Origin: Streptomyces sp. AC1-42W
Lineage (GTDB): Bacteria > Actinomycetota > Actinomycetes > Streptomycetales > Streptomycetaceae
Assembly: GCF_003248355.1 (NCBI RefSeq)
Contig: NZ_QKWY01000001.1
Location: 1,880,001-1,944,000 of the forward strand
DNA: 64,000 nt
Reading direction: 5' to 3'
A program made the translations under genes and the position numbers. Shown here in pieces: positions 3,652 through 30,149 of this stretch (the first letter of the stretch is position 1; each line of letters begins with the position of its first letter). Under the pieces are notes generated by a model. It ran no database searches. It worked only from the letters and a program-made list of their open reading frames with translations, and was not told the DNA's origin.

Positions 3652-5715
3652 ATGGCCCAGCAGCTGAGCCCCCCGGCCCAGGCCCCCGGCGCGGACCGCT
3701 CCACGCGGTCGGTCCTGGTGGCGATCGGCGCACTGCTTCTCGGCATGCTGCTCGCCGCACTCGACCAGACCATCGTCTCCACGGCACTTCCCACGATCGT
3801 CAGCGACCTCGGCGGGCTCGAACACCTGTCGTGGGTGGTCACGGCCTATCTGCTGGCCTCGACGGCCGCGACTCCGCTCTGGGGGAAGCTCGGCGACCAG
3901 TACGGGCGCAAGAAGCTGTTCCAGACCGCGATCGTCATCTTCCTGATCGGCTCCGCGCTCTGCGGTATCGCCCAGAACATGCCCCAGCTGATCGGATTCC
4001 GTGCCCTCCAGGGGCTCGGCGGCGGCGGGCTCATGGTGCTGTCGATGGCGATCGTCGGTGACATCGTCCCGCCCCGTGAGCGCGGCAAGTACCAGGGCCT
4101 CTTCGGCGCGGTGTTCGGGGCGACGAGCGTCCTGGGGCCGCTGCTGGGCGGTTTCTTCACCCAGCACCTCTCCTGGCGCTGGGTCTTCTACATCAACCTG
4201 CCCATCGGGGTGGTCGCCCTCGTGGTGATCGCCGCCGTGCTGCACATCCCGGTCGGCCGGACGAAGCACACCATCGACTACCTGGGCACCTTCCTCATCG
4301 CGGCGGTCGCCACCTGCCTGGTCCTCGTCGCCTCCCTCGGCGGCACCACCTGGCCCTGGGGCTCCTGGAAGATCATCGGCCTCGCGGTGCTGGCCGCCCT
4401 GCTGCTGATCGCGTTCGTGTTCGTGGAGCGGCGCGCCGCCGAGCCGGTGATCCCGCTGAAACTGTTCCGGATCAGGACGTTCAGCCTGGTCGCCGTGATC
4501 AGCTTCGTCATCGGGTTCGCGATGTTCGGCGCGATGACCTATCTGCCGACCTTCCTCCAGGTGGTGCACGGCATCACGCCGACGATGTCCGGTGTGCACA
4601 TGCTGCCGATGGTCTTCGGGCTGCTGATCACCTCCACGGTGTCCGGGCAGATCGTCAGCCGGACGGGCCGCTGGAAGGTCTTCCCGATCGCCGGGACCGG
4701 CATCACCGCGATCGGCCTGCTCCTGCTGCACCGGCTGACGGTCTCCAGCGGCACCTGGGAGATGAGCGCCTACTTCTTCGTGTTCGGCGCGGGGCTCGGC
4801 CTGGTGATGCAGGTCCTCGTCCTGGTCGTGCAGAACGCCGTCTCGTACCGGGACCTGGGCGTGGCGACCTCCGGCGCGACGTTCTTCCGGTCCATCGGGG
4901 CCTCGTTCGGTGTGGCGATCTTCGGCACGATCTTCACGAACCGGCTCACGGACAAACTCGGCGCCGCGCTCGCCGGCCGGTCGATGCCGCCAGGCGTCGA
5001 CGCCAAGGCCCTGGCCGCCGACCCGCGCGCCATCGGGCAGCTGCCGCCCGGCCTGCGCGGCCCGGTGCTCCAGGCCTACTCGACGTCGATCACCGATGTG
5101 TTCCTGTACGCCGCGCCCGTCGTCCTGGTCGCCTTCGTCTTCGCCTGGTTCCTCAAGGAGGACCCGCTGCGCGGCTCGGTGACGGCGCCCGACCCGACCG
5201 AGACGCTGGCCTCCAACCCGGTCGAGCGCTCCTCGTACGACGAGTGCGCGCGGGCCCTGTCCGTGCTCGCCACCCGGGAGGGCCGGCGCGAGGTCTATGT
5301 GAAGATCACCGAGCGGGCGGGCCTCGATCTGCTGCCGGCCGCCGGCTGGATGCTGCTGCGCATCAAGCGCCACGGCACCGTGGAGCCCGCCCGGCTCGCC
5401 GAGGTGGCGCCCGTACCGCTGCGCGTGATCAACGAGGCGGCCCGGCAGCTGGAGGGGCGCGGGCTCGTCCGGCGCGTCGGGGTGCAGATGGTGCTCACCG
5501 AGCCGGGCGCGGAGGCGGTGGTCAAGCTCGCCCAGGCCCGCGAGGACTCGCTGGCCGCGCTCCTGGGCGACTGGTGGGGGCCCGACCGGCCCACCGACCT
5601 GGTCGCCCTGGTCTCGGAGCTGACGGCCGAGACGAGCGGATCGAGCAAGGAGTGGCCGCACAGCCCCGAACCGAGGCGCGACCACGCGGCGGGCCACCCC
5701 CACCGGAGCGAGTGA
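3652..5715 (+). CDS. DHA2-family MFS drug exporter fused to a winged-helix domain
   Basis: The protein has 687 residues, about 150 more than a normal 14-helix DHA2 exporter. The transporter part (1 to about 530) begins with [18 protein letters not shown] in the first helix and has the GDQYGRKK loop after helix 2 (motif A) and a motif C-like GPLLGGFF. Residues from about 540 onward are hydrophilic and resemble a MarR/winged-helix fold ([27 protein letters not shown], then EGRGLVRR). It likely exports hydrophobic toxicants by proton antiport; the tail could sense ligand or bind nucleic acid. The start ATG follows a GAGGAGAT ribosome binding site. The fused architecture recurs in Streptomyces. 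Confidence 0.88.
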
Positions 5716-6244: not shown

Positions 6245-6344
6245 GGGGCCATTCTGGGCATCGCACACATGTATGGGCCACGTGATTTCGAGGGCGATGG
6301 CTGCCGGTGACACCTCACCCCTCGTACGCACATGCGGACCCGGC

Positions 6345-7511
6345 TCACCGCAGCGGCGGCGGCGTGAGGACCGGGGCCGGGGGCGTCACCGGGCGCCGGC
6401 GCCGGGCGCGTACCAGCAGCAGCACGGTCACGACCACCGCCGCCGCGCCGGCGAGCAGCGTCAGCAGCCAGGCCGGGATGCCGCCCCAGGTCAGCAGCGT
6501 CTCCCGGTGGATCACCGTCCGGTACGGGGTGTCCTCGGCGGTCGCCAGCAGTTCGTGGTCGCCGTTGATCCGCTCCGGCGTCGGGAAGTACTGGTGCATC
6601 GCCGTCAGGAAGACCGGCTTGTCGCCGGTGACCGCCGACAGCGCCTCGTACGGCTCCGCCGCCGGGTCCACCCGGCCGGCGTAGGAGACCTTCGCGGGCC
6701 GCCCGCCGATCGTGCCGCGCGGCTCCATGCGGTGGTCGGCCAGCACGTACAGGTCCAGGGACTGCGGGGTGGCGGCCAGCTTCGACAGACGCATCGGATA
6801 GACCAGCCGGTCGCTGGCGAACCGCAGCCGCAGCGGGTCGAGCGTGCCGCTCAGCGTGGCCCCCCGGTCCCGCGGCGCCAGCCGCACCGCCACGTACTCC
6901 CACTTCTGCTCCACGTACGGGGTCAGGGCGGTGGCGAGGCGGTCCGGCAGCTCGAAGCCGTTCTCCGTCAGCCAGCCCTCCAGCGCCTCCGGGTCCGTCG
7001 CCGCCAGCCGGGCCACGTCGAAGGGGCCCAGCCGCTCCCGGCCGACGACCTCGACCGGCGCGGGAGCCCGGGGCCCGGCGGCGCTGTCGCCCACCGCGTG
7101 GTCCGAGCCGCCGAACGGCCAGTCCTTCTCGCGCGGCCAGAAGTAGTGCCGCTCCTCGTGGACCGGCGCGGTGATCGCCTCCAGCTCCGTGAACAGCTCC
7201 GCGTCGCCCAGCTCGACCGTGGCGCGGTTCGGTACGGGCATGATCCAGGCCGCGTCGGGCGCGTCGCCCCGGACGCTCAGCCGCATCACGATCTGCTCGG
7301 TGCGGCCGTCCCAGCCCACCGCCGACGTCTCCCGGTCCACCGCGACCCGGCTGTCGCGGTCCACCACCATCGCCCCGCACCCGCAGGCGTACGCCGGCGC
7401 GATCAGCGATCCCAGCTGCAACGACACCAGGATCAGGGTCAGGGAGAGCGCACGGGCCGCCCAGCCGCGCGCCCCCTTGCCCGTCCCGCGTTCTCTCCGC
7501 GCGCGCCGCAT
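6345..7511 (-). CDS. DUF2330 domain membrane-anchored protein
   Basis: The 388-residue protein has an N-terminal signal segment (ALSLTLILVSLQLGSLIAPAYACGCGAMV, near 22-48) ending in a CGCGA motif. The extracytoplasmic part contains IMPVPNRATVELGD, and a C-terminal helix (LLTLLAGAAAVVVTVLLLV, about 347-365) is followed by basic residues. This matches actinobacterial DUF2330 proteins of unknown function that face the outside of the membrane. It has a good GGAGG ribosome binding site and is monocistronic. The only inference offered is an envelope role. Confidence 0.8.
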   Translation of the reverse strand: MRRARRERGTGKGARGWAARALSLTLILVSLQLGSLIAPAYACGCGAMVVDRDSRVAVDRETSAVGWDGRTEQIVMRLSVRGDAPDAAWIMPVPNRATVELGDAELFTELEAITAPVHEERHYFWPREKDWPFGGSDHAVGDSAAGPRAPAPVEVVGRERLGPFDVARLAATDPEALEGWLTENGFELPDRLATALTPYVEQKWEYVAVRLAPRDRGATLSGTLDPLRLRFASDRLVYPMRLSKLAATPQSLDLYVLADHRMEPRGTIGGRPAKVSYAGRVDPAAEPYEALSAVTGDKPVFLTAMHQYFPTPERINGDHELLATAEDTPYRTVIHRETLLTWGGIPAWLLTLLAGAAAVVVTVLLLVRARRRRPVTPPAPVLTPPPLR

Positions 7512-19924: not shown

Positions 19925-21114
19925 TCAGCCGACGGCTCGGAGCCGTTCGAGGAGTTCGCCGACACTAGCTGTGTGTGCGTATCGCGACAGTTCCGGTTCG
20001 AGGTCGCGCACCATCGTCACGCACCTGGGCGCATCGATCCGGCTGGCCAGATCGAGGGAACGGGTAGCGGTCGCCGCGGCGATCTCCGGTTCGCCGTCTC
20101 GGAGGTAGGTCTCGGCCTGGTAGGTCAGGAACACGGATTTGGTCTTGGAGCGGGTGGCGGTCAGCAGAGTGATGCCCTCGTCCATTAGCTGGTGGGCCTG
20201 GCGCCGCTGGCCGAGATCTGCGAGACAACGGCCACTGTCGGCTGCGAGGTCTGCGGTGGACATCCACGAGCACCAGGCGGGTGCTGGGTGCGGGGGATGG
20301 CGTGTTCGAGGATGTCGGCCGCAGCGCGGGCGTCCCCCAGCCACAGCAGTTGGTACGCGAGGTCGGAGAGGACGCCCGCGCCGAGGTCACGCTGGTGACT
20401 GACGTGGGCGTTGTGGAGGGCGGCATGCCAGAAGCGGCCGGCGGAGGCGTGACGGCGTTCGTCGAAGTGCTGCCAGGCGATGGCCTGGGAGAGCGAGGCG
20501 GCCAGGGTATGCGGCCGCTGTCCGGCGGCGGCGGTGTAGCGGGACTCGCCGATGAACTCGGTGACGGTGGTGAGGTGCGCGCCCAGCAGATGGCGGGTGC
20601 GGCGTCTGCGTTCGGTGGCGAGGCGGATCAGCGCCGTCCCGGTGACCTCCAGCCAGTCGAGCATCTCGGCGTCGACTTCGCCGGGTGCGGTGATCCGTGC
20701 GAACCGGCCGGGCTCGGTGACGGCCCACTGGTGGGCGAGAACGGCCAGCGAGCCGCTGGTGTAGGCGATGAACGACCGGCGGTCCAGGGAGGACATCAGG
20801 GCCTCTCGGAGTGAGGGGACGGCGTTGAGCGGGCCAAGCGGCAGCGGGCTGTCCTGGCCCGGGAGCCAGTGGGGCCAGCCGAGATGGGCGACGGCCGCGT
20901 AGTCGATGCCGAGGACCTCGGCGATGAGCGGCTGGGACTCGTCCTCGTCGGGGTCGGCGCGGCCGGTCTCCCACTTGGAGACTCGTGACCCCCGGGTGCC
21001 CGAGCGCAGGCCACGACGCGCTGCGGCCTGCCGGATACGACGGGCCAGTTCCTCCTGCGACCACCCGCGCTCGTTCCTGGCGTGCGCGAGGGGGTGGCGG
21101 ATCTCGTCGTCCAC
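19925..21114 (-). pseudogene. XRE/TPR regulator of the pentapeptide cluster, frameshifted
   Basis: The N-terminal part (GTG at 21114) encodes an HTH (HARNERGWSQEELARRIRQ... GSRVSKWETGRADPDEDE) and then a DRRSFIAYTSGSLAVLAHQW region and helical repeats down to about DILEHAIPRTQHP near 20285. The C-terminal half (STADLAADSGRCLADLGQRRQAHQLMDEG... YLRDGEPEIAAATATRSLDLA... PELSRYAHTASVGELLERLRAVG) continues in a different frame to 19925. Together they make a normal-length (~395 residue) XRE regulator with TPR-like repeats. The break at about 20270-20290 is either a real inactivation or a sequence error. It is divergent from the MSYDH cluster. Confidence 0.7.
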
Positions 21115-21165
21115 CCGCCCATTGCACCACCCGCTCCCCGGCCGGGGGAGCTGTTCAAGGAGACC

Positions 21166-21186
21166 GGGGATAGGGCGGGGATAGGG
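21166..21186. promoter_or_regulatory. tandem direct repeat, possible operator
   Basis: Two exact copies of GGGGATAGGG (21166-21175 and 21177-21186) lie 11 bp apart, one helical turn. They sit in the divergent interval between the XRE regulator (52 bp upstream of its GTG) and the pentapeptide gene. The placement suggests a binding site for that regulator. The rest of 21187-21381 shows no gene, and I cannot name a promoter box with confidence. Confidence 0.45.
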
Positions 21187-21395
21187 AATTCCTCTGTGCA
21201 CCGCGACCGGCGGCCGCTGTACTGGTCGTGTTCCGCCCGGCACCCCGTGTGACCGGGCGGAGTGCGGCGACGACTGTTCCCTGTGGCCTTGTCCGCCCGC
21301 CGGGCTGTGTCTGTCCCGTCCGCCGGGCGAGGGCCGGCCCGGGGATTCACCGTTGCCGTACGCCCGCCGTCACCGACGCACAGGGAGGGACTGCC

Positions 21396-21413
21396 ATGTC
21401 GTACGACCACTGA
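21396..21413 (+). CDS. pentapeptide minigene MSYDH, probable RiPP precursor (biarylitide-like)
   Basis: This 18-bp gene reads ATG TCG TAC GAC CAC TGA and gives Met-Ser-Tyr-Asp-His. A strong ribosome binding site (AGGGAGGGA, 21382-21390) ends 5 nt before the ATG. It lies 75 nt upstream of a cytochrome P450 gene on the same strand. Known biarylitide precursors are equally short (for example MRYYH, MRYLH), follow an M-x-Y-x-H pattern, and are crosslinked between Tyr and His or Tyr by the adjacent P450, after which the two N-terminal residues are removed. By analogy the product core would be Tyr-Asp-His. A longer in-frame reading back to about 21228 exists but lacks its own ribosome binding site. 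Confidence 0.7.
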   Translation: MSYDH

Positions 21414-21427
21414 GCCCGAGAAATCCG

Positions 21428-21459
21428 GGGCGGGCCCGCCCGATGAGGCGGGCCCGCCC
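21428..21459. terminator. strong hairpin between precursor minigene and P450
   Basis: A perfect 13-bp GC stem (21428-21440 with 21447-21459) closes a CGATGA loop, starting 15 nt after the minigene stop. Such a hairpin can partly terminate or stabilise the precursor message so that more peptide than P450 is made. Confidence 0.65.
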
Positions 21460-21488
21460 TTCCCGCCCCCGGAAGGTATGGACCCGTG

Positions 21489-22658
21489 ATGCCGTCTGTG
21501 ACCGACCGCTACGACCCCTTGGACGCGGAGATCCTGCACGACCCCTACCCGGTACTGGCCGAACTGCGTGAGCACGCACCGGTGTTCTGGCACGCGGGCA
21601 TGGATTCGTGGGCTCTGGCCAGGTACGCGGACAGCGTGCGGGTGCTGCGCGACCACGAGACGTTCGCCCGCGACCCGCGGCGTACCGGGGGCGAGGTGCC
21701 GGAGCCGTCCTTGAGCGTGCAGACGCTCGACCCGCCGCAGCAGAACGCGGTGCGCTCCCTGTTCATGACCGCGCTGCGGGCCCAGGACCTGACCGGGGTC
21801 GAGGACCGTGCCCGCCTCCTGGTGGGCGAGCGGCTCGACCGGCTGGCCGGCGGGGGCCTGTTCGACGTGATGGCCGAGATCGCGGTGCCGCTGTCCGTGG
21901 CGGTCGTCGCGGATCTGCTGGGTGTCGAGCCTCCGCCGTACGGGGAGTTCGCCGCGGTGTCGGACGTGATCATGCGGAGCATGGACGGCGGCCTCAACCC
22001 CGCGCTCGTCGAACCGGGCCGTGTCGCCCGCCAGCAGCTGAGCGGCCTGGTCGACTCCTGGTTCGAAGCCTCGTCCCGCCCCGGCCTGCTGGCCCGGGTA
22101 CGGCAGGCCACGGCGCCCGGCTCCGACGCGCGGACCGGGCTGTATGTGAAGAACACGGCGCGGGTGATGTTCCAGGGCGGCTACAGCACGATGGCGGCTG
22201 CCATCGGCAACGCCGTCAACACCCTCCTCACTCACCCGGGAGCCCTGGACCGGATGCGGGACCGGGCACTGCTGGCCACGGGGGTGGATGAGCTGGTGCG
22301 CTTCGACGGCCCGGTGCAGGGCACCACCCGCACGGCGGTGCGCTCCTGCCGGATCGGCGGCGTCGACATCGCGCCGGGGCAGAAGGTCGTCCCGCTGTTC
22401 GCGGCGGCCAACCGAGACCCGGCCGCCTTCACGCGGCCGGACGAACTGGTGCTGAATCGCACCCCGAACCGCCACCTCGGCTACGGGTGGGGGCCGCACT
22501 CCTGCATCGGGACGACCGTCGCCCAAGCCGGGCTGCGCGCCCTGGTCGCGGCCCTGAACAACCACCCGGCCCGGCTGGCCGCTGCCGGCGACGGCGTACG
22601 GCGCCGGACGGCGACCATGCGGGCCTTCGACACGCTGCCCGCTGTCCTCCTCCTCTGA
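21489..22658 (+). CDS. cytochrome P450, probable peptide crosslinking enzyme
   Basis: The 389-residue class I-type bacterial P450 has the K-helix ExxR at E268-R271 (DELVRF) and the heme loop GYGWGPHSCIG with ligand Cys339. The I-helix reads VMFQGGYSTMAAAIG, so the usual acid before Thr is replaced by Ser, as often occurs in enzymes acting on tethered or aromatic crosslinking substrates. It follows the MSYDH minigene directly, the arrangement of biarylitide loci, so it is proposed to join the Tyr and His side chains (C-C, C-N or C-O) of the pentapeptide. A GTG codon immediately before the ATG is an equal start choice; GGAAGG lies upstream. No ferredoxin gene is nearby. Confidence 0.9.
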   Translation: MPSVTDRYDPLDAEILHDPYPVLAELREHAPVFWHAGMDSWALARYADSVRVLRDHETFARDPRRTGGEVPEPSLSVQTLDPPQQNAVRSLFMTALRAQDLTGVEDRARLLVGERLDRLAGGGLFDVMAEIAVPLSVAVVADLLGVEPPPYGEFAAVSDVIMRSMDGGLNPALVEPGRVARQQLSGLVDSWFEASSRPGLLARVRQATAPGSDARTGLYVKNTARVMFQGGYSTMAAAIGNAVNTLLTHPGALDRMRDRALLATGVDELVRFDGPVQGTTRTAVRSCRIGGVDIAPGQKVVPLFAAANRDPAAFTRPDELVLNRTPNRHLGYGWGPHSCIGTTVAQAGLRALVAALNNHPARLAAAGDGVRRRTATMRAFDTLPAVLLL

Positions 22659-22723
22659 GCACGCCCCCGCACCACGGCGATCGGCGCGCGCTGCCCGTCC
22701 GTCCACGTCTTCAGGAGTCCGCC

Positions 22724-24130
22724 ATGCGCATCCTCATCGGCAACCACATTGATCCGTCCATCCGCGAGCGCGGCGACATGCGGGCCTGGACGCAGCGCCT
22801 GCTGTGGTTCGGCCGCCCCGGTGACCTGCTCATCCTGTGCTGCGAGCCGGACACGGCGTTCGTCGACCACGCCCTGGCCCATACCGGCGTGAAGCGCGAG
22901 GAGCTGACCGTGCTGACCGCACCGGCCGGAGCGTGGGGCGAGAGGCTGCTCGATCTCGCCTCCCTGACGGTGCCCGCGTTCGTGGAGCAGGTGCGGGCCG
23001 CGCTCGGTCCGGCCGGGGCCGGCCCGGTTAGCGAGGTGTTCGCGCTGTGGCCGTCGGCCGCCGTGGCACGGCTCGCCGAGGCCCTGGGCGTGGCCGACCG
23101 CTTCCCGGGCGCGGCCTTCTTCGGGCAGGGCGGCGGGGAGATCGGCAACAGCAAGGCGAACTTCCGGGCCCTGGCGGCGGCGGCCGGGGTGCCGATCCTG
23201 CCGGGCCGGGTCTGCCGCAGCCGCGCCGAAGCGACCGAAGCGACCGGCGCGCTGTTGGAGTGCTCCGCATCGGGGGCCGTCGTGGTCAAGCAGGCCCACA
23301 ACGGGGCCGGGGTCGGCAACCAGCTGCTCGTACGCGACCCGGGGATGGCGGTGGACCATGTCGGGGCCCGGCACCTGCACCATCTGGCCCCAGGCCCGGA
23401 CGGCGTCGCCGCGTACTGGGGCGAGCGGTGGCCGTGGGCGAGCGGGAACGACCGGTGGCCGGTCGTCATCGAGGAGTTCGCGCCCGGCGCCGACGCCGTG
23501 TACTCCGAGCACTACGCCGCGGACGGGGGCACCCGGGCCACCGAGACGGGCCGCCTGCTGTATGTCGGGCGGCGTCTGAGCCACCAGGTTGTGCCGCTGG
23601 ACGGGGTCACCGAGCCGGTGCGGGCGGCGCTGCTGGACGGCGGGGCCCGCCTTGCCGAGGCGTACCGGGCGTTCGGCTACCGCGGGCACCTGAGCGCGGA
23701 CGCCCTGGTCCTGCCCGATGGGTCTGTGGTGTTCACCGAGGTCAACGCGCAGGTCTCCGGGTCGTTGCACATCTACCAGTCGATCGCCCACGGCATCGTC
23801 GACGTCGCCGCCGCCCCGGCCCGGCAGGTGGTCGAATACCACGTCCCGCCCACCTGGGCGGTGCCCTCGTTCTCCGAGTTCCTCGCCGCGCTCGACGAGC
23901 TGGGCCTGGCGTACGACCCGGCCACCCGGACCGGGGTGATCGTGTCGATGCCCGCCATCCCCCTCGCCCCCGGGGAGCCGGTGCAGTTCGTGTTCTGCCT
24001 CGCCTACGACCCCGCCGAAGGCCACACAGCCGCGTTCGACCGGCTCGACGCACGGTTCGCGGCCGTGCCCGCCGGCACCTACGACGCCAGCCAGCACATC
24101 GGCACCGGCGCCGTGTCCTTCTCCTCCTGA
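22724..24130 (+). CDS. ATP-grasp ligase, resembling PGM1-type peptide ligases
   Basis: The 468-residue protein has an N-terminal preATP-grasp-like region (1 to about 130), then an ATP-grasp core: GNSKANFRALAAAAGVPILPG, ASGAVVVKQAHNGAGVGN (lysine and Gly loop binding ATP), VVIEEFAPGADAVYSE, and the metal site VVFTEVNAQVSGS (E-x-N). A further C-terminal domain follows (GVIVSMPAIPL). This layout resembles PGM1, the pheganomycin ligase that joins a guanidino amino acid to ribosomal peptides. It is therefore the best candidate to condense a building block with the crosslinked tripeptide. The PGM1 likeness is by eye only. The ATG follows CAGGAG. Confidence 0.75.
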   Translation: MRILIGNHIDPSIRERGDMRAWTQRLLWFGRPGDLLILCCEPDTAFVDHALAHTGVKREELTVLTAPAGAWGERLLDLASLTVPAFVEQVRAALGPAGAGPVSEVFALWPSAAVARLAEALGVADRFPGAAFFGQGGGEIGNSKANFRALAAAAGVPILPGRVCRSRAEATEATGALLECSASGAVVVKQAHNGAGVGNQLLVRDPGMAVDHVGARHLHHLAPGPDGVAAYWGERWPWASGNDRWPVVIEEFAPGADAVYSEHYAADGGTRATETGRLLYVGRRLSHQVVPLDGVTEPVRAALLDGGARLAEAYRAFGYRGHLSADALVLPDGSVVFTEVNAQVSGSLHIYQSIAHGIVDVAAAPARQVVEYHVPPTWAVPSFSEFLAALDELGLAYDPATRTGVIVSMPAIPLAPGEPVQFVFCLAYDPAEGHTAAFDRLDARFAAVPAGTYDASQHIGTGAVSFSS

Positions 24131-24145
24131 CCGGGAGCCTCGCCC

Positions 24146-25117
24146 ATGACCACCACCTCGCTCACCGCGGCCACCGAGGCCGCCCAGCTCTCCCCCGTCT
24201 TCGACTCCGACCGACTGGCCGCCGAACTCAAGGCCGTCACCACCCACACCTGGAACGTGCAGCGCACCCACACCCACGGCGGGCAGGTCGGCCTGCCCGC
24301 CGCGATCGACTGGCGGGTCCTGCCCCTGCGCAGCCTCGGCGGCGACCCGGAACGCTCCGACCCGGGCGGCCCCGGGCCCCAGCCGTTCGCGCCGACGCAC
24401 TGGCTCGACCAACTGCCCTACCTCGGCGAGATCCTGAACTCGGTCCCCTCCCCGCTCAACGCGGTACGGCTGATGGCGCTGGGGCCCGGCGCCGCCTCGG
24501 ACCCGCACCGCGACCCCAAGTACCGGCTGGACCGGGGCATCGTGCGCCTGCACATCCCCGTCGTCACCGACCCGGGCGCCGTGCTCGTCCTGGACGGCGT
24601 CGAACACTGCTGGCAGCCGGGCACCTGCTGGTACGGCGACTTCTCCCGCGAGCACCTGGTACGCAACACCAGCCAGACGGTGACCCGCGTCCACGCCGTG
24701 ATCGACGCCCTGCTCACCGCCGATCTCGCGGCCTGGTTCCCGGACGCCTGGCAGCACCTCCTCGCCCACGGCGAGGTCCTGTTCAACCGCACCGGCTCGG
24801 CCGAGGCTCCCGCCTGGCCCGGCGAGCTGCCGTACGAGGCGCTGCTGCCGTCCGGGTTCGCGGACTTCGACTCACCCGCCCCGCTGGACGGCTCCCTCAT
24901 CCCCGCCCGCATCGACCATGCCGATGGTGTCCTCGCCCTGACGGTCGCCGGGCGCACCTTCGCGCTCGTCCCGGCCGGCGGCACCGGGGAGTTCCGGTTC
25001 TCCGGCTGGAGCGAGCAGCGCACCCTCCAGCCCGACAGCAACGGTCTGACCCTGCGGGTCCGCCGCGGCCGCTCCCTCGCCGACCGGCACGTGGCCGCCG
25101 CGCCCCGCGCCTCCTGA
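24146..25117 (+). CDS. aspartyl/asparaginyl beta-hydroxylase-like Fe(II)/2-oxoglutarate oxygenase
   Basis: The 323-residue protein carries the cupin-type iron site: DPHRDPKYRLDRGIVRLHIPV gives His121 and Asp123, and the later HLVRNTSQTVTRVHAVID gives the distal His170 and the 2-oxoglutarate-binding Arg181. This arrangement fits the aspartyl/asparaginyl beta-hydroxylase family. The last ~120 residues are an extra domain. Because the predicted core peptide contains one Asp, between Tyr and His, beta-hydroxylation of that residue is the simplest role. It could instead hydroxylate a free amino acid used by the ligases. It starts 15 nt after the ATP-grasp stop. Confidence 0.8.
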   Translation: MTTTSLTAATEAAQLSPVFDSDRLAAELKAVTTHTWNVQRTHTHGGQVGLPAAIDWRVLPLRSLGGDPERSDPGGPGPQPFAPTHWLDQLPYLGEILNSVPSPLNAVRLMALGPGAASDPHRDPKYRLDRGIVRLHIPVVTDPGAVLVLDGVEHCWQPGTCWYGDFSREHLVRNTSQTVTRVHAVIDALLTADLAAWFPDAWQHLLAHGEVLFNRTGSAEAPAWPGELPYEALLPSGFADFDSPAPLDGSLIPARIDHADGVLALTVAGRTFALVPAGGTGEFRFSGWSEQRTLQPDSNGLTLRVRRGRSLADRHVAAAPRAS

Positions 25118-25152
25118 CCCCGCCCGCACACCCCGAGAGAAGAGGAACGCCC

Positions 25153-26304
25153 ATGGCCCGCCTGAACAGTCACGACGACTTCACCCCGCTCAAGGAGGTC
25201 ATCGTCGGGTCCGCCGCCAACTACGTGGGACACGACCGCGACGTCAGCTTCGAGCTGTTCCACCACGAGAACCTGAAAGGCTTCCGGTCGGACTGGGCCT
25301 ATCCGCGCCTGACCCGGACGTCGGCCGGCCACCGGGAGAGCTGGGCCATCAAGGAGCGGTACGCCGAGGAGCTGCACGAGGACGTGGAGGCCCTGGCCGC
25401 CGTCCTCGCCGGGCTCGGGGTCGCCGTGCACCGTCCGCTGCCGCTGCCTCCCGACGCGAAGGTCATCGCGGGCCTGGGCTGGGAGGCCGCCCCGACCCCG
25501 GCGCTGAACATCCGCGACAACACGCTGATCCTCGGCGACGAGATCATCGAGACGCCGCCCGCGATCCGCTCCCGCTACCTGGAGACCCGCCTGCTCGCCC
25601 CCGTCTTCACCCGCTACTGGGAGGCCGGCGCGCGGTGGACCACGATGCCCCGCCCCACCCTCACCGACACGTCGTTCGACCTGTCCTACGCGCGGGACAC
25701 CGCGACCACCCTGGGCGGGCCGACCGAGGCCATCGACGACCCGCAGCCCAGCCCGTACGACGTCGGCGTGGAGATCATGCTGGACGGCGCGCAGGTGCTG
25801 AGGCTGGGCCGGGACCTGGTCGTCAACGTCGCCCAGGAGAACCACGCCCGTGGCGCCGAGTGGCTTCAGAGGCACCTCGGCCACGAGTACCGCGTCCACC
25901 GGGTGTGGCGGATGGCGGACAACCACATCGACAGCATGGTCCTCGCCCTGAAGCCTGGGGTGTTCCTGGCCCGGCACGACGGCATCCGGGACCTGATGCC
26001 CGAACCGCTGCGCTCGTGGCGCTACATCGTGCCGCCGGAGCCGGATGAGGGCGCGTTCCCGGTCTACGACGACTACGAGGACTTGGTCCTCACCAGCCCC
26101 TACATCGACCTCAACGTGCTCTCGGTTGACGAGCGCACGGTTCTGGTCAACCAGGAGTGCACCGGCCTGGCCAAGCTGCTGGAGGCCGAGGGCTTCGGCG
26201 TGGTGCCCGTCCGGCACCGGCATCGGCGCCTGTTCGGGGGCGGGTTCCACTGCTTCACTCTGGACACCCACCGCACCGGCGGCTTCGAGGACTACCTGTC
26301 GTGA
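25153..26304 (+). CDS. amidinotransferase (arginine:glycine/inosamine amidinotransferase family)
   Basis: The 383-residue enzyme shows the family's full catalytic triad: Asp211 (EIMLDGAQVLRLG), His258 (DNHIDSMVLALKPG) and the nucleophile Cys367 (GGGFHCFTLDTHR), with spacings close to those of human AGAT (254/303/407). It begins SHDDFTPLKEVIVGSA as in AGAT and StrB1. It should move the amidino group of arginine onto an amine through a thiouronium intermediate. In this locus it could make a guanidino acid for the ATP-grasp ligase or cap the peptide N terminus. Its stop overlaps the GTG of the second ATP-grasp gene. Ribosome binding site AGAGGAA. Confidence 0.9.
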   Translation: MARLNSHDDFTPLKEVIVGSAANYVGHDRDVSFELFHHENLKGFRSDWAYPRLTRTSAGHRESWAIKERYAEELHEDVEALAAVLAGLGVAVHRPLPLPPDAKVIAGLGWEAAPTPALNIRDNTLILGDEIIETPPAIRSRYLETRLLAPVFTRYWEAGARWTTMPRPTLTDTSFDLSYARDTATTLGGPTEAIDDPQPSPYDVGVEIMLDGAQVLRLGRDLVVNVAQENHARGAEWLQRHLGHEYRVHRVWRMADNHIDSMVLALKPGVFLARHDGIRDLMPEPLRSWRYIVPPEPDEGAFPVYDDYEDLVLTSPYIDLNVLSVDERTVLVNQECTGLAKLLEAEGFGVVPVRHRHRRLFGGGFHCFTLDTHRTGGFEDYLS

Positions 26305-27590
26305 CCCTCCCGGGTGTGCTGCTACTGGACGCGGCCGGCCCCGAGGCAGGTTTCCTCGCCACGGCAGCCGCCGCCCGCGGGCACCAGGTCCACGCCGCGA
26401 CCACCGCCGCGGCGTACACGGGCTACGGTCCGGAGCTGAGGGGCCTTCTGGCCGGGCGGGTCGTCACCGACTTCGACCGGCCCGGCCGGGCCCTCGACGA
26501 GATCGCCGCGTACGCCCGCCGCCACGGTGTCGGCGCCGTGCTCACCGTCAACGAATACCTGACCGGCCTCACCGCGCATCTCTGCGCCGAACTGGGGCTG
26601 CCCGGCAACGACCCCGCCTCCGCGCGGGCGGCCCGGGACAAGGCCGCCATGGCCGAGACGTTCACCATGGCCGGGGTGCGCACCCCGTACACGGTCCTCG
26701 TCCGCGACGAGGCCGGGCTGCGGGCCGCGCTGGCAGACCCACGGGTCGGCTTCCCGTGTGTCGTCAAGCCGCCGTCCGCGGCGGGTTCCGCCGGCGTCAC
26801 GGTGGTGACCGGCCCGGCCGGTGCGGCCGAGGCCGCCGACACCGCCCGCGCGGCGGTCGGCATGTACGAAAGCGGCGGTGACCCGCGCATCCTGGTCCAG
26901 GCATACGCCGCAGGGACGGAGTACAGCATCGAGTCCCTTACACAAGACGGCACCACGACGCACCTCGCCGTGACCCGGAAGCAGGTGACCGGCGGCCCGA
27001 AGAGAGTCGAGACCGGTCACAGCCTCCCCGTCTGCCTGCCACCGGCCGTCGAGGCGGCCGTCTACCGGGAGACGGAGGCGGCCATCCGGGCGGCCGGAAT
27101 CCGGCATGGTGCCTCGCACACCGAGGTCATCGTCGGCGAGGACGGGCGGTGCACGGTCATCGAACTCGGCGCCCGCCTCGCCGCCGGGCAGATCGGCGTC
27201 CTGATCCAGCACGCCCTGGGCATCGACGTGTGGGCGGCTCTGCTCGACATCGCCCTCGGCCGCCCGGCCGCACTCGCCCCCACCACCCGCAGGTATGCGA
27301 CCGTACGATTCGTGACCAGCCCGCGCGCCGGACGGCTGACCTCGCTCTCCGGATTCCCGGCGACGGGGCCGGGCGTGCCGTTCGTCCGTCGGCGGGCAGC
27401 GATCGGGAGCACCGTCCACGAACCGGGAGCCAACGGCCACCGGCTCGGATCGTTCGTGGTCACCGGTCTGGACGCTGCCGAGGTCGAGGAGCGGGCCGAC
27501 GCGCAACTACGGAGGATCCGCATCGAAGTCGAACCACACCACGGCGAACCGGGACCGGTCCCCGGCCGCTCGGCCAGGACCGGCCGATGA
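26301..27590 (+). CDS. second ATP-grasp ligase (carbamoyl-phosphate-synthase/BacD-like)
   Basis: The 429-residue protein has a Rossmann-like N-terminal domain (VLLLDAAGPEAGFLATAAAARGHQVHAAT) and an ATP-grasp core: NEYLTGLTAHLCAELGLPGND, ARDKAAMAETFTMAGVRTPYT, FPCVVKPPSAAGSAGVTVV (ATP loop), LVQAYAAGTEYSIESL and CTVIELGARLAAGQIG (metal site E-x-G/N). This type activates a carboxylate as acyl phosphate and couples it to an amine, as in dipeptide ligases. Two different ATP-grasp enzymes in one short operon suggest two amide bonds are made. The GTG start overlaps the amidinotransferase stop (GTGA). Confidence 0.83.
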   Translation: MTLPGVLLLDAAGPEAGFLATAAAARGHQVHAATTAAAYTGYGPELRGLLAGRVVTDFDRPGRALDEIAAYARRHGVGAVLTVNEYLTGLTAHLCAELGLPGNDPASARAARDKAAMAETFTMAGVRTPYTVLVRDEAGLRAALADPRVGFPCVVKPPSAAGSAGVTVVTGPAGAAEAADTARAAVGMYESGGDPRILVQAYAAGTEYSIESLTQDGTTTHLAVTRKQVTGGPKRVETGHSLPVCLPPAVEAAVYRETEAAIRAAGIRHGASHTEVIVGEDGRCTVIELGARLAAGQIGVLIQHALGIDVWAALLDIALGRPAALAPTTRRYATVRFVTSPRAGRLTSLSGFPATGPGVPFVRRRAAIGSTVHEPGANGHRLGSFVVTGLDAAEVEERADAQLRRIRIEVEPHHGEPGPVPGRSARTGR

Positions 27591-27597
27591 GCGGCCG

Positions 27598-28602
27598 ATG
27601 AGCGGGCCCGCCACACGGGAGGCGCACGAATCCGGGGCCGGTCCGGCGATCACAGCGGCCTGCTTCCCCGCCCCTGCCCTCCTCCTGCGCACCAACGACC
27701 CGGTCGCCCAGCAGACGGTCCGGGCCTTCGCCGGCCAGCAAGCCGGGGCGGCGCGCTTCCTGGCCCGGTCCCTGGCCGCCGCTCTCCGCCCGGCCCCCGA
27801 CACGCGGGCCCGGGTCGCGGCCTTCATCGCCGCGTTCGAGGCGACGGAGGACTGGCGGTACAGGGCAGCGGCCTCCAGCCCGCACAACACCGGCCGGTAC
27901 AGCCCCACGTGGGCAGACCGGTTCCGGACTCCCATCACCGACGACAGCCCCAACCTCTTTCGCGTCGGTGACCACGCCCGCTTCCGGGACGGCGCGACGT
28001 GGGATCCAGCGACCCGCACCTACCAGGGGGGCACCGACACCCCGGCCAGCCGGACGATGCGACGGTTCGAGGCGCTCGCCGCCGTGAGATTTCCCCCGTC
28101 GCCGGGCGTTGACGTCGTATGCAACAGCGTCTCCCTGCCCGACGGCCGCACCGTGGACGGGACGCGGCTCCTGCGCGGTGCCGCCGCCCACCGGGCCGCG
28201 GCCGAAATGGCCGGCCGGATCTCAGCACGAGGCGGGGACACGTCCCGTATCGCCACCAGCGGACATCTGATCTATACCGCCAGCGCACCGGAAACAGAAC
28301 GCCACGCGGTCTTCCACCACGCCATGACCCTGCTCGCCCGCGACCACACCACCCCGGCCGACACGCTGACCGCATGGCTCCAGGCCGCCTACCTCCTCTA
28401 CCAGGCCCCCCGCAGAAAGCGAGGCGCCGACGCGACGATCCGCACCTTCCTCGTCGCAGCGGGCACCCTCCTGCTGTCCAGCCCACCCGCGCTGCCACAC
28501 GACATCGACCTGCGCGCCTATACCCGGACACACGATCTGTTCGTCACCGAACTACGGGCCGCCCAGAGCATCGGTACAACCTCCGCCGGACGGCGGATCT
28601 GA
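27598..28602 (+). CDS. protein of unknown function in the pentapeptide cluster
   Basis: I do not recognise this 334-residue protein. It is hydrophilic and mainly helical in its second half (HAVFHHAMTLLARDHTTPADTLTAWLQAAYLLYQAPRRKRG), with a middle part reading VDVVCNSVSLPDGRTVDGTRLLRGAAAHRAAAE. No signal peptide or membrane helix is seen, and no metal or nucleotide motif is clear. It follows the second ATP-grasp gene by 7 nt on the same strand, so it is probably part of the pathway. An 11-bp tandem duplication (CGGCCGATGAG) at 27580-27601 covers the stop/start junction. Confidence 0.7.
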   Translation: MSGPATREAHESGAGPAITAACFPAPALLLRTNDPVAQQTVRAFAGQQAGAARFLARSLAAALRPAPDTRARVAAFIAAFEATEDWRYRAAASSPHNTGRYSPTWADRFRTPITDDSPNLFRVGDHARFRDGATWDPATRTYQGGTDTPASRTMRRFEALAAVRFPPSPGVDVVCNSVSLPDGRTVDGTRLLRGAAAHRAAAEMAGRISARGGDTSRIATSGHLIYTASAPETERHAVFHHAMTLLARDHTTPADTLTAWLQAAYLLYQAPRRKRGADATIRTFLVAAGTLLLSSPPALPHDIDLRAYTRTHDLFVTELRAAQSIGTTSAGRRI

Positions 28603-28619
28603 ATCTGCACACCAACCGG

Positions 28620-29606
28620 TCAGGCCAGAGCGGCAAGCACTCCGGCCAGCGTGTCGTAACTCTCGCGGACCGCGTCCGCCTTGCCCAGCCGGTGCCGCTC
28701 AAGCCGGATCGCGGCCAGGTGCCGGGCCTCGTAGATCCCCGCGCGCCACACAGCGGCGGGCGAGCGGTCCACAGCGCCGTAGGTCTCCCAGAACGCGGTC
28801 CGCTCGTCCTGCTTGGCTGTCGCCATGCGAATGGTCCAGTCGGCCGCCGGGTCACCGAACCACGCACGGTCGAAATCCAGCACTCCGGTGATCACCGGTT
28901 CGGGAGCCTTCGGGTCCAACAGGGCGTTGACGGTCCACAGATCGCCGGTCAGCAGCCTCGGCTCGGTGACCTCGTCGAGCGCGGCCCGCCCGTGCGCGGC
29001 CACCGCGGCGACCTTCCGTACGTCACCCGCGTCCAGACCGGCACCGTCCAGGTCTGCGGCGATCTCCTCCAGCGACGCGATCACTGCCTCGCTCCACGTC
29101 CCGTGTCCCGGACCGCCGACGGGCCCGAAGTGCGGACCGCGCACGTGATGCACGGAACGGGCGATGGCACCCATCTGCCCGAAGAACGCCGACCACTGCG
29201 TACGCGGATACGCCCCCAACCGCTCCGGCGCCGGAACGCCGTCCAGGCACGTCTGGATCATCCAGTCCCGGCCGATCACCTCGTGCGACCAGTCCGCGGC
29301 CAGGACCCGCGGCATCAGCGGCGCGATCACCGCCAGCCAGGGCTGGGCCGCGTACTCGTTCCGCATCAGGTGGCGCTCGCTGCGGAACTGGCGGCCCTCC
29401 TCCGGCGCGACCCGCAGGATCACCGGCTCCGCCCGCCCGGCCAGGGCCACGCAGTAGACGTTGTTGTACATCCCCGTGCCCAGCTCGACCGCGGAGACAG
29501 GCACAGCCTCGGGGCCGAAGGCCCGGCGGCAGATCTCCGCAATCTCCTGGGCGGTCACTGACTGTTGGAACGCCTCCGAGGCGCGCTCAACCGGCTGAAA
29601 ATCCAT
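28620..29606 (-). CDS. APH-family phosphotransferase
   Basis: The 328-residue kinase-like protein has the APH fold: a nucleotide-binding N lobe (VELGTGMYNNVYCVAL; VILRVAP with the likely ATP Lys replaced by Arg), a catalytic loop LLTGDLWTVNALLDP where the catalytic Asp and Asn are kept but the usual leading His is Thr, and the metal-binding GVLDFDRAWFGDPAAD. It ends 17 nt from the convergent cluster gene. It might phosphorylate the cluster product or a related metabolite (self-protection), or be unrelated. The substrate is unknown. Confidence 0.82.
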   Translation of the reverse strand: MDFQPVERASEAFQQSVTAQEIAEICRRAFGPEAVPVSAVELGTGMYNNVYCVALAGRAEPVILRVAPEEGRQFRSERHLMRNEYAAQPWLAVIAPLMPRVLAADWSHEVIGRDWMIQTCLDGVPAPERLGAYPRTQWSAFFGQMGAIARSVHHVRGPHFGPVGGPGHGTWSEAVIASLEEIAADLDGAGLDAGDVRKVAAVAAHGRAALDEVTEPRLLTGDLWTVNALLDPKAPEPVITGVLDFDRAWFGDPAADWTIRMATAKQDERTAFWETYGAVDRSPAAVWRAGIYEARHLAAIRLERHRLGKADAVRESYDTLAGVLAALA

Positions 29607-30149
29607 ACCGCTCAGGATGCCCCGCCCGACAGCCGCTCGTCACATCCACCGCGTGCGGCGACACGGCGGAAACACCCGCCCTGACATAGCCTCGGCTGCT
29701 GCCGCGCTTCCACTGGGCCAGTCCACCGCGCCGGAGTACTTCACCCTGAACAGTGACGAGACGGGCTGGTTAAGGACATCTGGTCCGCGCTGCATCGGGC
29801 CGACGAGCGGGCCGTCGCCGAGGTCGCCGCCCGGCTCGCCCGGGCGAAGGACCGCACGCGGCGGCTGGACGTGCTGGTCTTCACCGACCCGACCAGCTAC
29901 GACATCACGCGAGACGACAGCACGGCCCGCCCGCGCATCGCGTCGAGCGCGCCCACCTGCGCCCGCACAACCCCGCGGCTCGTCGCGAGGATCCAGAACA
30001 CCGAGTGCCCGCTGAGCCCAGCGATCAGAGGGGCCCCGCTGCCGCCTTCTTGCGGCCCCAGTGCCGTGCGTCGGCAAGTACGAGAAGCTGTGGCGCCGGA
30101 CCGGCAGCACACCCATCAACCGGACGATCCAGACCAGAGCGGGTGAAAG
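29607..30149. other. gene-poor interval with a possible gene remnant
   Basis: About 540 bases without a supportable gene. From roughly 29767 to 29930 the plus strand has a coding-like stretch (VKDIWSALHRADERAVAEVAARL, then RRLDVLVFTDPTSYDI) that lacks a start and fades into poor codon bias, so it may be the leftover of a broken gene. No tRNA or other RNA gene was recognised. Confidence 0.35.

What the first reader, a model, noticed from the sequence alone, without database searches (positions are those of the whole stretch)
21396..22658. A five-residue gene, MSYDH, next to a cytochrome P450: biarylitide-like minimal RiPP
ATG-TCG-TAC-GAC-CAC-TGA has its own ribosome binding site (AGGGAGGGA, 5-nt spacing) and lies just upstream of a P450. 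Seen: the codons, the spacing and the P450 motifs. Known: biarylitide precursors such as MRYYH and MRYLH are leaderless pentapeptides with an M-x-Y-x-H pattern, crosslinked by the neighbouring P450. Inferred: Tyr3 and His5 of MSYDH are crosslinked and the product is based on Tyr-Asp-His. Asp at position 4 and Ser at 2 differ from the precursors I know, so this would be a new subclass. Gene finders would miss it.
Basis: partly seen in the sequence, partly recalled or inferred. Interest (0 to 1): 0.95.

Follow-up and report, generated by a model that had tools for sequence, protein, structure and literature searches.

The report
Five-residue peptide gene beside crosslinking P450
An 18-letter gene for the five-residue peptide MSYDH sits just upstream of a P450 gene and is kept almost unchanged at 28 related loci; the P450 is predicted to tie its tyrosine to its histidine, and neighbouring enzymes would likely decorate the resulting ring, a cluster type already noted by genome mining but with no product that I found described.

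Summary
ATG-TCG-TAC-GAC-CAC-TGA lies at 21396-21413 behind AGGGAGGGA, the only M-x-Y-x-[HYW]-stop frame in the window. At 29 loci (window plus 28) M-[S/T/F]-Y-D-H is kept with synonymous changes: gene 93% mean pairwise identity, flanks 32-43%.

The P450's nearest solved relatives include RufO and P450Blt, which bind biarylitide-type pentapeptides.

PGM1 and the amidinotransferase each accompany 31 of 32 Y-D-H precursors and 0 of 17 others.

"New subclass" does not hold: PMC13417212 (July 2026) reports 47 clusters pairing Asp-4 precursors with Pgm1 homologues. I found no product described.

Added here: a hairpin behind the pentapeptide gene in most loci, a Gln/Asn I-helix signature, precursor variants MRYDHCL and MRYND.

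Best reading: a biarylitide whose Tyr-Asp-His ring is likely capped pheganomycin-style with a guanidino acyl group.

The parts
21382..21390 (+). Shine-Dalgarno-like site of the pentapeptide gene (AGGGAGGGA, 5 nt before ATG)
   Evidence: sequences before the ATG in 29 loci are printed
21396..21413 (+). pentapeptide precursor gene MSYDH (bytA-type)
21430..21457 (+). GC-rich hairpin between pentapeptide gene and P450 (11-bp stem, 6-nt loop), no T-run by the scan used
21486..22658 (+). cytochrome P450 (starts GTG 21486 or ATG 21489), biarylitide lineage; predicted Tyr3-His5 crosslinker
22724..24130 (+). PGM1-type ATP-grasp peptide ligase (PreAtp-grasp, PGM1_C)
24146..25117 (+). aspartyl/asparaginyl hydroxylase-like Fe/2-oxoglutarate dioxygenase; H121, D123, H170 (candidate iron triad) invariant in 40 aligned sequences
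25153..26304 (+). amidinotransferase (StrB1/GATM type)
   Evidence: relatives named glycine amidinotransferase in NBC_01241 and NBC_00513
26301..27590 (+). second ATP-grasp ligase (L-amino acid ligase type, LAL_C2)
27598..28602 (+). protein without Pfam or NCBIfam match; five related loci examined have instead a frame read by eye as a SAM methyltransferase
28620..29606 (-). APH-family phosphotransferase, conserved neighbour (role not known; self-protection or tailoring are guesses)
20185..21114 (-). NsdA-family helix-turn-helix regulator, divergent, present beside many of the close loci

Best explanation
MSYDH is encoded by an 18-bp gene of the biarylitide type, and its neighbouring P450 is predicted to crosslink Tyr-3 to His-5, after which the Tyr-Asp-His ring would likely be capped with a guanidino-bearing acyl group by the amidinotransferase and the PGM1-type ligase. 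Steps in order: (1) the gene is translated from its own ribosome site; conservation is shown and a ribosome site is seen, translation was not measured. (2) A hairpin behind the stop codon likely trims or stabilises the transcript so that more precursor than enzyme is made (hairpin shown by folding statistics in most loci, role inferred). (3) The P450 removes two hydrogens and joins Tyr-3 to His-5 (inferred from lineage). (4) A host peptidase removes Met-Ser (inferred from myxarylin work, PMC12951456). (5) The amidinotransferase makes an alpha-guanidino acid, simplest case guanidinoacetate from glycine, and PGM1 joins its carboxylate to the amine of Tyr (inferred from pheganomycin logic). (6) The dioxygenase hydroxylates a residue and the second ATP-grasp enzyme adds another unit (inferred, targets unknown). 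The confidence given is for steps 1, 3 and 4; step 5 I hold at about 0.35.
For: M-[S/T/F]-Y-D-H at 29 loci with synonymous codon changes, gene 0.93 versus flanks 0.32-0.43 mean pairwise identity. Nearest solved P450s include RufO (268.6 bits) and P450Blt (243.6 bits); after the top ten sequences the next scores 139.2 bits (entry names from passages of PMC12186263). In the P450 tree 25 Y-D-H rows, the window among them, form one supported group, and the other 7 lie in an 11-row group with precursors MDYSH, MSYNH and MNYNH and one locus without a precursor found. At the I-helix site matched to His-234 of P450Blt (a specificity residue, PMC10929621 passages) all 32 Y-D-H P450s carry Gln (25) or Asn (7), while the MRYLH, MRYIH and MKYWH P450s carry His. 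PGM1 in 31 of 32 and amidinotransferase in 31 of 32 Y-D-H loci, 0 of 17 others for both. The ligase matches PGM1 (3wvq) at 258.5 bits over residues 1-407. The amidinotransferase aligns with StrB1 through GGGFHC and H-[IV]-D-S. PGM1 links a small peptide with a phenyl-guanidinoacetic acid (PMC8939145 passage). A biarylitide P450 accepts Asp at position 4 in vitro (PMC12951456, section 8).
Against: No crosslink, mass or transcript was measured. L040 has MSYDH and a P450 of this kind but neither PGM1 nor amidinotransferase in the 18 kb read. L088 has P450, PGM1, amidinotransferase and phosphotransferase, but I found no pentapeptide. PGM1 homologues of 30-40% identity also occur in seven genomes and four plasmids whose surroundings I did not open. 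Four dioxygenase homologues (38-45%) lie in loci with no hit to this P450. The published sav cluster carries amidinotransferase and hydroxylase with MRYVH and gave only unmodified crosslinked YVH (PMC13417212), so the amidinotransferase could act on the peptide amine instead. RufO, the best-scoring relative that I could name, nitrates tyrosine rather than crosslinking.
Confidence: 0.8

Rival explanations
1. The amidinotransferase amidinates the N-terminal amine of the crosslinked Tyr-Asp-His directly, as a cap like the methyl group of myxarylin, and PGM1 and the second ATP-grasp enzyme then join the ring's C-terminal or Asp carboxylate to an amine.
For: The sav cluster has amidinotransferase and hydroxylase, and its text names no ligase (PMC13417212). 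In pheganomycin PGM1 joins a guanidino acid to a peptide (PMC8939145; that the guanidino acid is the acyl part is recalled), and an amidinated ring would itself be a guanidino acid. PGM1 goes with Y-D-H as a unit (31 of 32) and is absent from the two MRYDY loci, so Asp next to His may be its target.
Against: Known PGM1 chemistry adds a separate guanidino acid to a peptide; sav gave no amidinated product.
Confidence: 0.3
2. The P450 nitrates or hydroxylates the peptide tyrosine instead of crosslinking it, as RufO does to supply nitrotyrosine.
For: RufO structures score above P450Blt in the PDB comparison.
Against: No NO synthase match (PF02898) in this genome, while the control search rang in 2 of 14 named genomes; RufO has Ala/His/Glu at the I-helix sites where this P450 has Val/Gln/Ser; the tree puts RufO apart from the Y-D-H rows (P450Blt was not in the tree).
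Confidence: 0.05
3. MSYDH is the C-terminal end of a longer precursor with a leader, as in cittilins or atropopeptides.
For: Two in-frame GTG codons lie 147 and 168 nt upstream in the window, and 25 of 29 loci have some upstream in-frame start.
Against: 4 of 29 loci have no upstream in-frame start; the upstream piece compared is only 35% identical between loci; the start is ATG in 29 of 29 and a purine-rich stretch precedes it.
Confidence: 0.02
4. The six codons are a regulatory mini-frame (attenuator with the hairpin behind it) rather than a precursor.
For: A strong hairpin follows in 25 of 29 loci with z below -1.64, which would suit attenuation.
Against: In L040, L084 and L086 the MSYDH gene lies downstream of the P450 gene, where it could not attenuate it; relatives with the same layout carry other aromatic pentapeptides (MRYAY, MRYIH).
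Confidence: 0.05

Closest known systems
Biarylitides (bytA/bytO), Asp-4 plus Pgm1 group of PMC13417212
   Same: Pentapeptide with Asp at position 4, BytO-lineage P450, Pgm1 ligase homologue; 47 such clusters reported there.
   Different: The letters MSYDH are not in that main text; supplements could not be opened, so this species may or may not be listed. The I-helix signature, the amidinotransferase and phosphotransferase counts and the hairpin statistics are from the calls here.
Pheganomycin (PGM1 ligase joining a guanidino amino acid to a ribosomal peptide)
   Same: PGM1-type ligase plus an amidinotransferase beside a ribosomal peptide.
   Different: The peptide here is a pentapeptide beside a P450; genes for the aryl-glycine part were not looked for.
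Sav cluster of Saccharothrix variisporea (MRYVH)
   Same: Pentapeptide, P450, amidinotransferase and Asp/Asn hydroxylase together (PMC13417212, section 12).
   Different: Position 4 is Val and the text mentions no Pgm1 for it.
Myxarylin (MNYLH, bytAOZ)
   Same: Pentapeptide followed by an intergenic region whose predicted structure is listed as a supplementary figure (PMC8708641, title of the figure only).
   Different: N-methylated, three-gene operon with a methyltransferase, Leu at position 4.
Rufomycin RufO
   Same: Related P450, binds MRYLH (PMC12186263 passages).
   Different: Nitrates tyrosine; this genome has no NO synthase match.

Membership tests
Biarylitides | Five-residue precursor M-x-Y-x-H/Y/W encoded by an 18-bp gene | tested here: met
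Biarylitides | Precursor gene next to a P450 of the BytO/P450Blt/RufO lineage | tested here: met
   72 or 75 nt from the pentapeptide stop to the P450 start; by PDB comparison; by tree with RufO (P450Blt and BytO sequences not in the tree)
Biarylitides | Precursor conserved with the P450 across species | tested here: met
   29 M-x-Y-D-H loci; against it L088, L094, L098 without an assigned precursor and L111 truncated
Biarylitides | P450-made biaryl crosslink between residues 3 and 5 | not testable with these tools
   needs expression and mass spectrometry or NMR
Pheganomycin-type peptides | PGM1-type ATP-grasp ligase in the cluster | tested here: met
Pheganomycin-type peptides | Genes for a guanidino amino acid | tested here: inconclusive
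   amidinotransferase present; genes for an aryl-glycine part not searched
Rufomycin-type nitrating P450 | NO synthase to feed the P450 | tested here: not met
   no match in the genome
Cittilins/atropopeptides | Precursor with a longer leader | tested here: not met
   4 of 29 loci allow no longer frame

The most novel reading that the evidence does not exclude
The operon makes a hybrid of two peptide logics: a P450-bridged Tyr-Asp-His ring from an 18-bp gene, capped by PGM1 with a guanidino acyl group (guanidinoacetyl in the simplest case, [M+H]+ 531.1946, or 547.1896 with one hydroxyl), with Y-D-H kept as the recognition unit of the ligase and read by a Gln/Asn I-helix residue of the P450.
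Probability: 0.35. Interest if true: 0.7.

Novelty: new member of a known kind. Interest (0 to 1): 0.48.

Why it matters
The biarylitides assayed in the two papers I consulted on this showed no antimicrobial or other activity (PMC13417212; PMC8708641), though the former mentions possible effects of related peptides on plants. The Y-D-H clusters carry an unusually full set of extra enzymes, kept together in Streptomyces, Kineosporia and other actinobacteria, on chromosomes and on plasmids (one typed conjugative), so they are good places to look for a finished compound and its use. The operon gives named masses and single-enzyme tests.

Tried and rejected
Rejected: tyrosine nitration (no NO synthase match); longer leader; chance frame (0 of 4000 shuffles); a T-tailed intrinsic terminator at 21100-21600 (0 found); an Rfam family at 20000-30000 at gathering threshold (0 matches). 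Asp-4 as the sure target of the dioxygenase: a homologue also occurs with MRYAY (L043) and MRYLH (L097) and, in print, with MRYVH, so I do not claim it. Fold search of the dioxygenase model (mean pLDDT 80.4) put proline hydroxylases first and AspH entries from rank 10, TM-scores 0.32-0.40 by query length, which does not name the substrate.

Mistakes mended: read minus-strand loci in the wrong direction (redone with strands); the amidinotransferase and regulator queries were out of frame (redone).

Rows dropped or not opened. Before the counts: duplicates L101, L103, L105, L108 of genomes already held, and L088, L094, L098, L111, where no pentapeptide was assigned (L111 is a truncated contig). 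L041, L042 and L090 are near-copies and count as three. Two of the 17 others (L048, L051) have only a distant MRYLH. L142 came from a later search and is not in that table. Of 30 non-own genomes with a match, long stretches were fetched for 22 (20, two); eight weaker ones (37-40% identity) were not taken further. MRYND was followed: no third genome among 70 and 394 searched (samples overlap earlier ones); one search lists P450s 76-98% identical to the L085 one in other organisms, whose surroundings I could not see.

Full report
WHAT IS THERE. At 21396-21413 the window reads ATG TCG TAC GAC CAC TGA, preceded by AGGGAGGGA and followed, 72 nt after the stop, by the GTG of a P450 (ATG three bases later). 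The P450 frame has GYGWGPHSCIG and ELVR, read as heme-ligand and E-x-x-R motifs from general knowledge. The pentapeptide frame is the only M-x-Y-x-[HYW]-stop on either strand of the window, and none of 4000 dinucleotide shuffles of the 374-nt stretch before the P450 gave one with a ribosome-site-like match.

IT IS UNDER SELECTION AS A PEPTIDE. After removing four duplicates, 29 loci including the window hold a frame M-x-Y-D-H-stop. Codon 2 is Ser in 26, Thr in 2, Phe in 1; Ser is written TCG, TCC or AGC, Tyr TAC or TAT, stop TGA or TAA; ATG, GAC and CAC do not vary in these 29. Mean pairwise identity is 0.93 for the gene and 0.32-0.43 for three flanking pieces of the same length. Four of the 29 loci (L079, L086, L089, L096) have no in-frame start upstream, and in L089 a stop codon begins 30 nt before the ATG, so the peptide is not the end of a longer precursor there. 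In L040, L084 and L086 the gene lies after the P450 gene instead of before it.

THE P450. Against solved structures the ten best sequences score 235-269 bits and the next 139. Those ten include RufO (8SPP, 9DUJ, 9EBY) and P450Blt (8U2M), as named in passages of PMC12186263; I did not identify the others. In a tree of 64 P450 rows, without P450Blt or BytO, the window sits in a supported group of 25 rows, all with Y-D-H; seven further Y-D-H rows sit in an 11-row group with MDYSH, MSYNH, MNYNH and one locus without a precursor found. PMC10929621 names A231, H234 and E238 of the P450Blt I-helix as specificity residues. I placed them on RufO by the pattern A-x2-H-x3-E, since P450Blt itself was not aligned. 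At the H234 place all 32 Y-D-H P450s have Gln (25) or Asn (7); the MRYLH, MRYIH, MRYIY and MKYWH enzymes and RufO have His; the first P450s of the MRYAY and MRYDY loci have Leu. The signature is not exclusive: the MRYND P450s and L098 also have Gln, and L088, MDYSH and MSYNH have Asn. A myxobacterial biarylitide P450 accepted Asp at position 4 in vitro (PMC12951456, section 8 read). Nitration is unlikely because the genome has no NO synthase match.

THE OPERON. Downstream lie a PGM1-type ligase (258.5 bits to PGM1 3wvq), an Asp/Asn hydroxylase-like dioxygenase (PF05118; H121, D123 and H170 invariant in 40 aligned sequences, taken as the iron triad from general knowledge of the fold), an amidinotransferase (171.3 bits to StrB1), a second ATP-grasp ligase and, on the other strand, an APH-family phosphotransferase. 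Over 49 loci with an assigned precursor, PGM1 occurs in 31 of 32 Y-D-H loci and 0 of 17 others; the amidinotransferase in 31 of 32 and 0 of 17; the phosphotransferase in 26 of 32 and 0 of 17; the dioxygenase in 25 of 32 and 2 of 17 (entered by hand; 32 = the 29 loci above plus three near-identical MRYDHCL loci; related loci are not independent, so the Fisher value printed there is not a true probability). The two MRYDY loci have Asp-4 but no PGM1 in the stretch read, so the partner of PGM1 looks like Y-D-H rather than Asp-4 alone. The amidinotransferase is 70-73% identical to the window's in L084, L086, L088 and L089, where the P450 is 46-50% identical, but only 28% in the MRYDHCL loci. After the second ligase the window has a protein of no matched family, also in L079; in the five other loci that I examined there (L033, L035, L081, L096, L099) a frame that I read by eye as a SAM methyltransferase takes its place, and the CdTB01 plasmid has an annotated one.

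EXCEPTIONS AND LIMITS. L040 carries MSYDH and the P450 with neither PGM1 nor amidinotransferase in the 18 kb read. L088 carries PGM1, amidinotransferase and phosphotransferase with a P450, but I found no pentapeptide. Seven genomes and four plasmids with PGM1 homologues of 30-40% identity were not opened, so the count says that Y-D-H loci have PGM1, not that PGM1 needs Y-D-H. Dioxygenase homologues of 38-45% identity lie in four loci with no hit to this P450.

HAIRPIN. The 65 nt behind the pentapeptide stop fold with z below -1.64 in 32 of 37 loci tested, including MRYAY, MRYIH, MRYIY and MRYDY loci with unlike stem sequences; the five below that mark are L086, L095, L102, L104 and L106. In a controlled run over the 29 M-x-Y-D-H loci it was 25 of 29 behind the gene, against 3 of 29 and 11 of 28 in two upstream pieces and 4 of 29 and 2 of 29 in pieces 400 and 700 nt downstream. 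The window's hairpin has no T-run by the scan used. A predicted structure of this region in the myxarylin cluster is listed among the supplement titles of PMC8708641, so the hairpin as such is not new; its spread over precursor lineages is what these calls add. The role, setting precursor above enzyme, is inferred.

HOW IT LIKELY WORKS. Crosslinking first, leader removal next and capping last is the order reported for myxarylin (passages of PMC12951456). PGM1 links a small peptide with a phenyl-guanidinoacetic acid (PMC8939145 passage). Put together: ring closure by the P450, removal of Met-Ser, then an alpha-guanidino acid made by the amidinotransferase and joined to the ring amine by PGM1. 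All of this is inference for this locus. The main rival puts the amidino group directly on the ring amine; the published sav cluster, with amidinotransferase and hydroxylase but giving only plain YVH (section 12 read), leaves that open.

WHAT IS IN PRINT. PMC13417212 (sections 5 and 12 and the first of three parts of section 6 read, other passages searched) reports 277 biarylitide clusters, 47 of them pairing Asp at position 4 with Pgm1 homologues, and draws the pheganomycin comparison. The string MSYDH gave 3 papers in the held library, none on this subject by their titles and abstracts; biarylitide together with amidinotransferase gave PMC13417212 only. The library lacks most subscription journals and supplements could not be opened, so earlier mention of MSYDH is possible. 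The finding is therefore a sound new member of a reported group, whose product I did not find described.

Noticed in passing
L085:6227-6244 (GTG start) and 6340-6357; L087 reverse strand, position 4856 of the reversed read: Pentapeptide MRYND, Asp instead of an aromatic residue at position 5: two copies in one genome and one in another, before a P450 about 49% identical to the window's and a frame that looks by eye like an MFS transporter. PMC13417212 searched only for aromatic residues at 3 and 5; PMC12951456 mentions a non-aryl residue 5 in Nocardia ninae without giving letters in the text. The string MRYND gave one unrelated paper.
   Followed up: partly
L041, L042, L090, 127 nt upstream of the matched start of the P450: Seven-residue frame MRYDHCL, Y-D-H with a two-residue tail, in three near-identical loci with a PGM1 homologue (39-40%) and a divergent amidinotransferase (28%).
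   Followed up: partly
21430-21457 and the same place in related loci: Hairpin directly behind the pentapeptide gene in most loci of several precursor lineages.
   Followed up: yes
NZ_CP108495.1, NZ_CP061283.1, NZ_CP107846.1, NZ_CP013744.1: The cluster lies on Streptomyces plasmids, one typed as conjugative; in the three regions opened (not NZ_CP061283.1) the listed annotation lacks the pentapeptide although M-[S/T]-Y-D-H is there (the plasmid gene table is incomplete by its own description).
   Followed up: yes
L142 (Bacillus arachidis plasmid), 1224 nt after the matched start of the P450: MNYNH downstream of a related P450 (42%) with two ATP-grasp genes nearby.
   Followed up: partly
L095, 303 and 184 nt upstream of the P450: Two copies of MSYNH before a P450 with Asn at the I-helix site; no PGM1 in the stretch read.
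   Followed up: no
27598-28602: Frame of 334 residues with no Pfam or NCBIfam match, found otherwise only in L079 among the loci compared.
   Followed up: no
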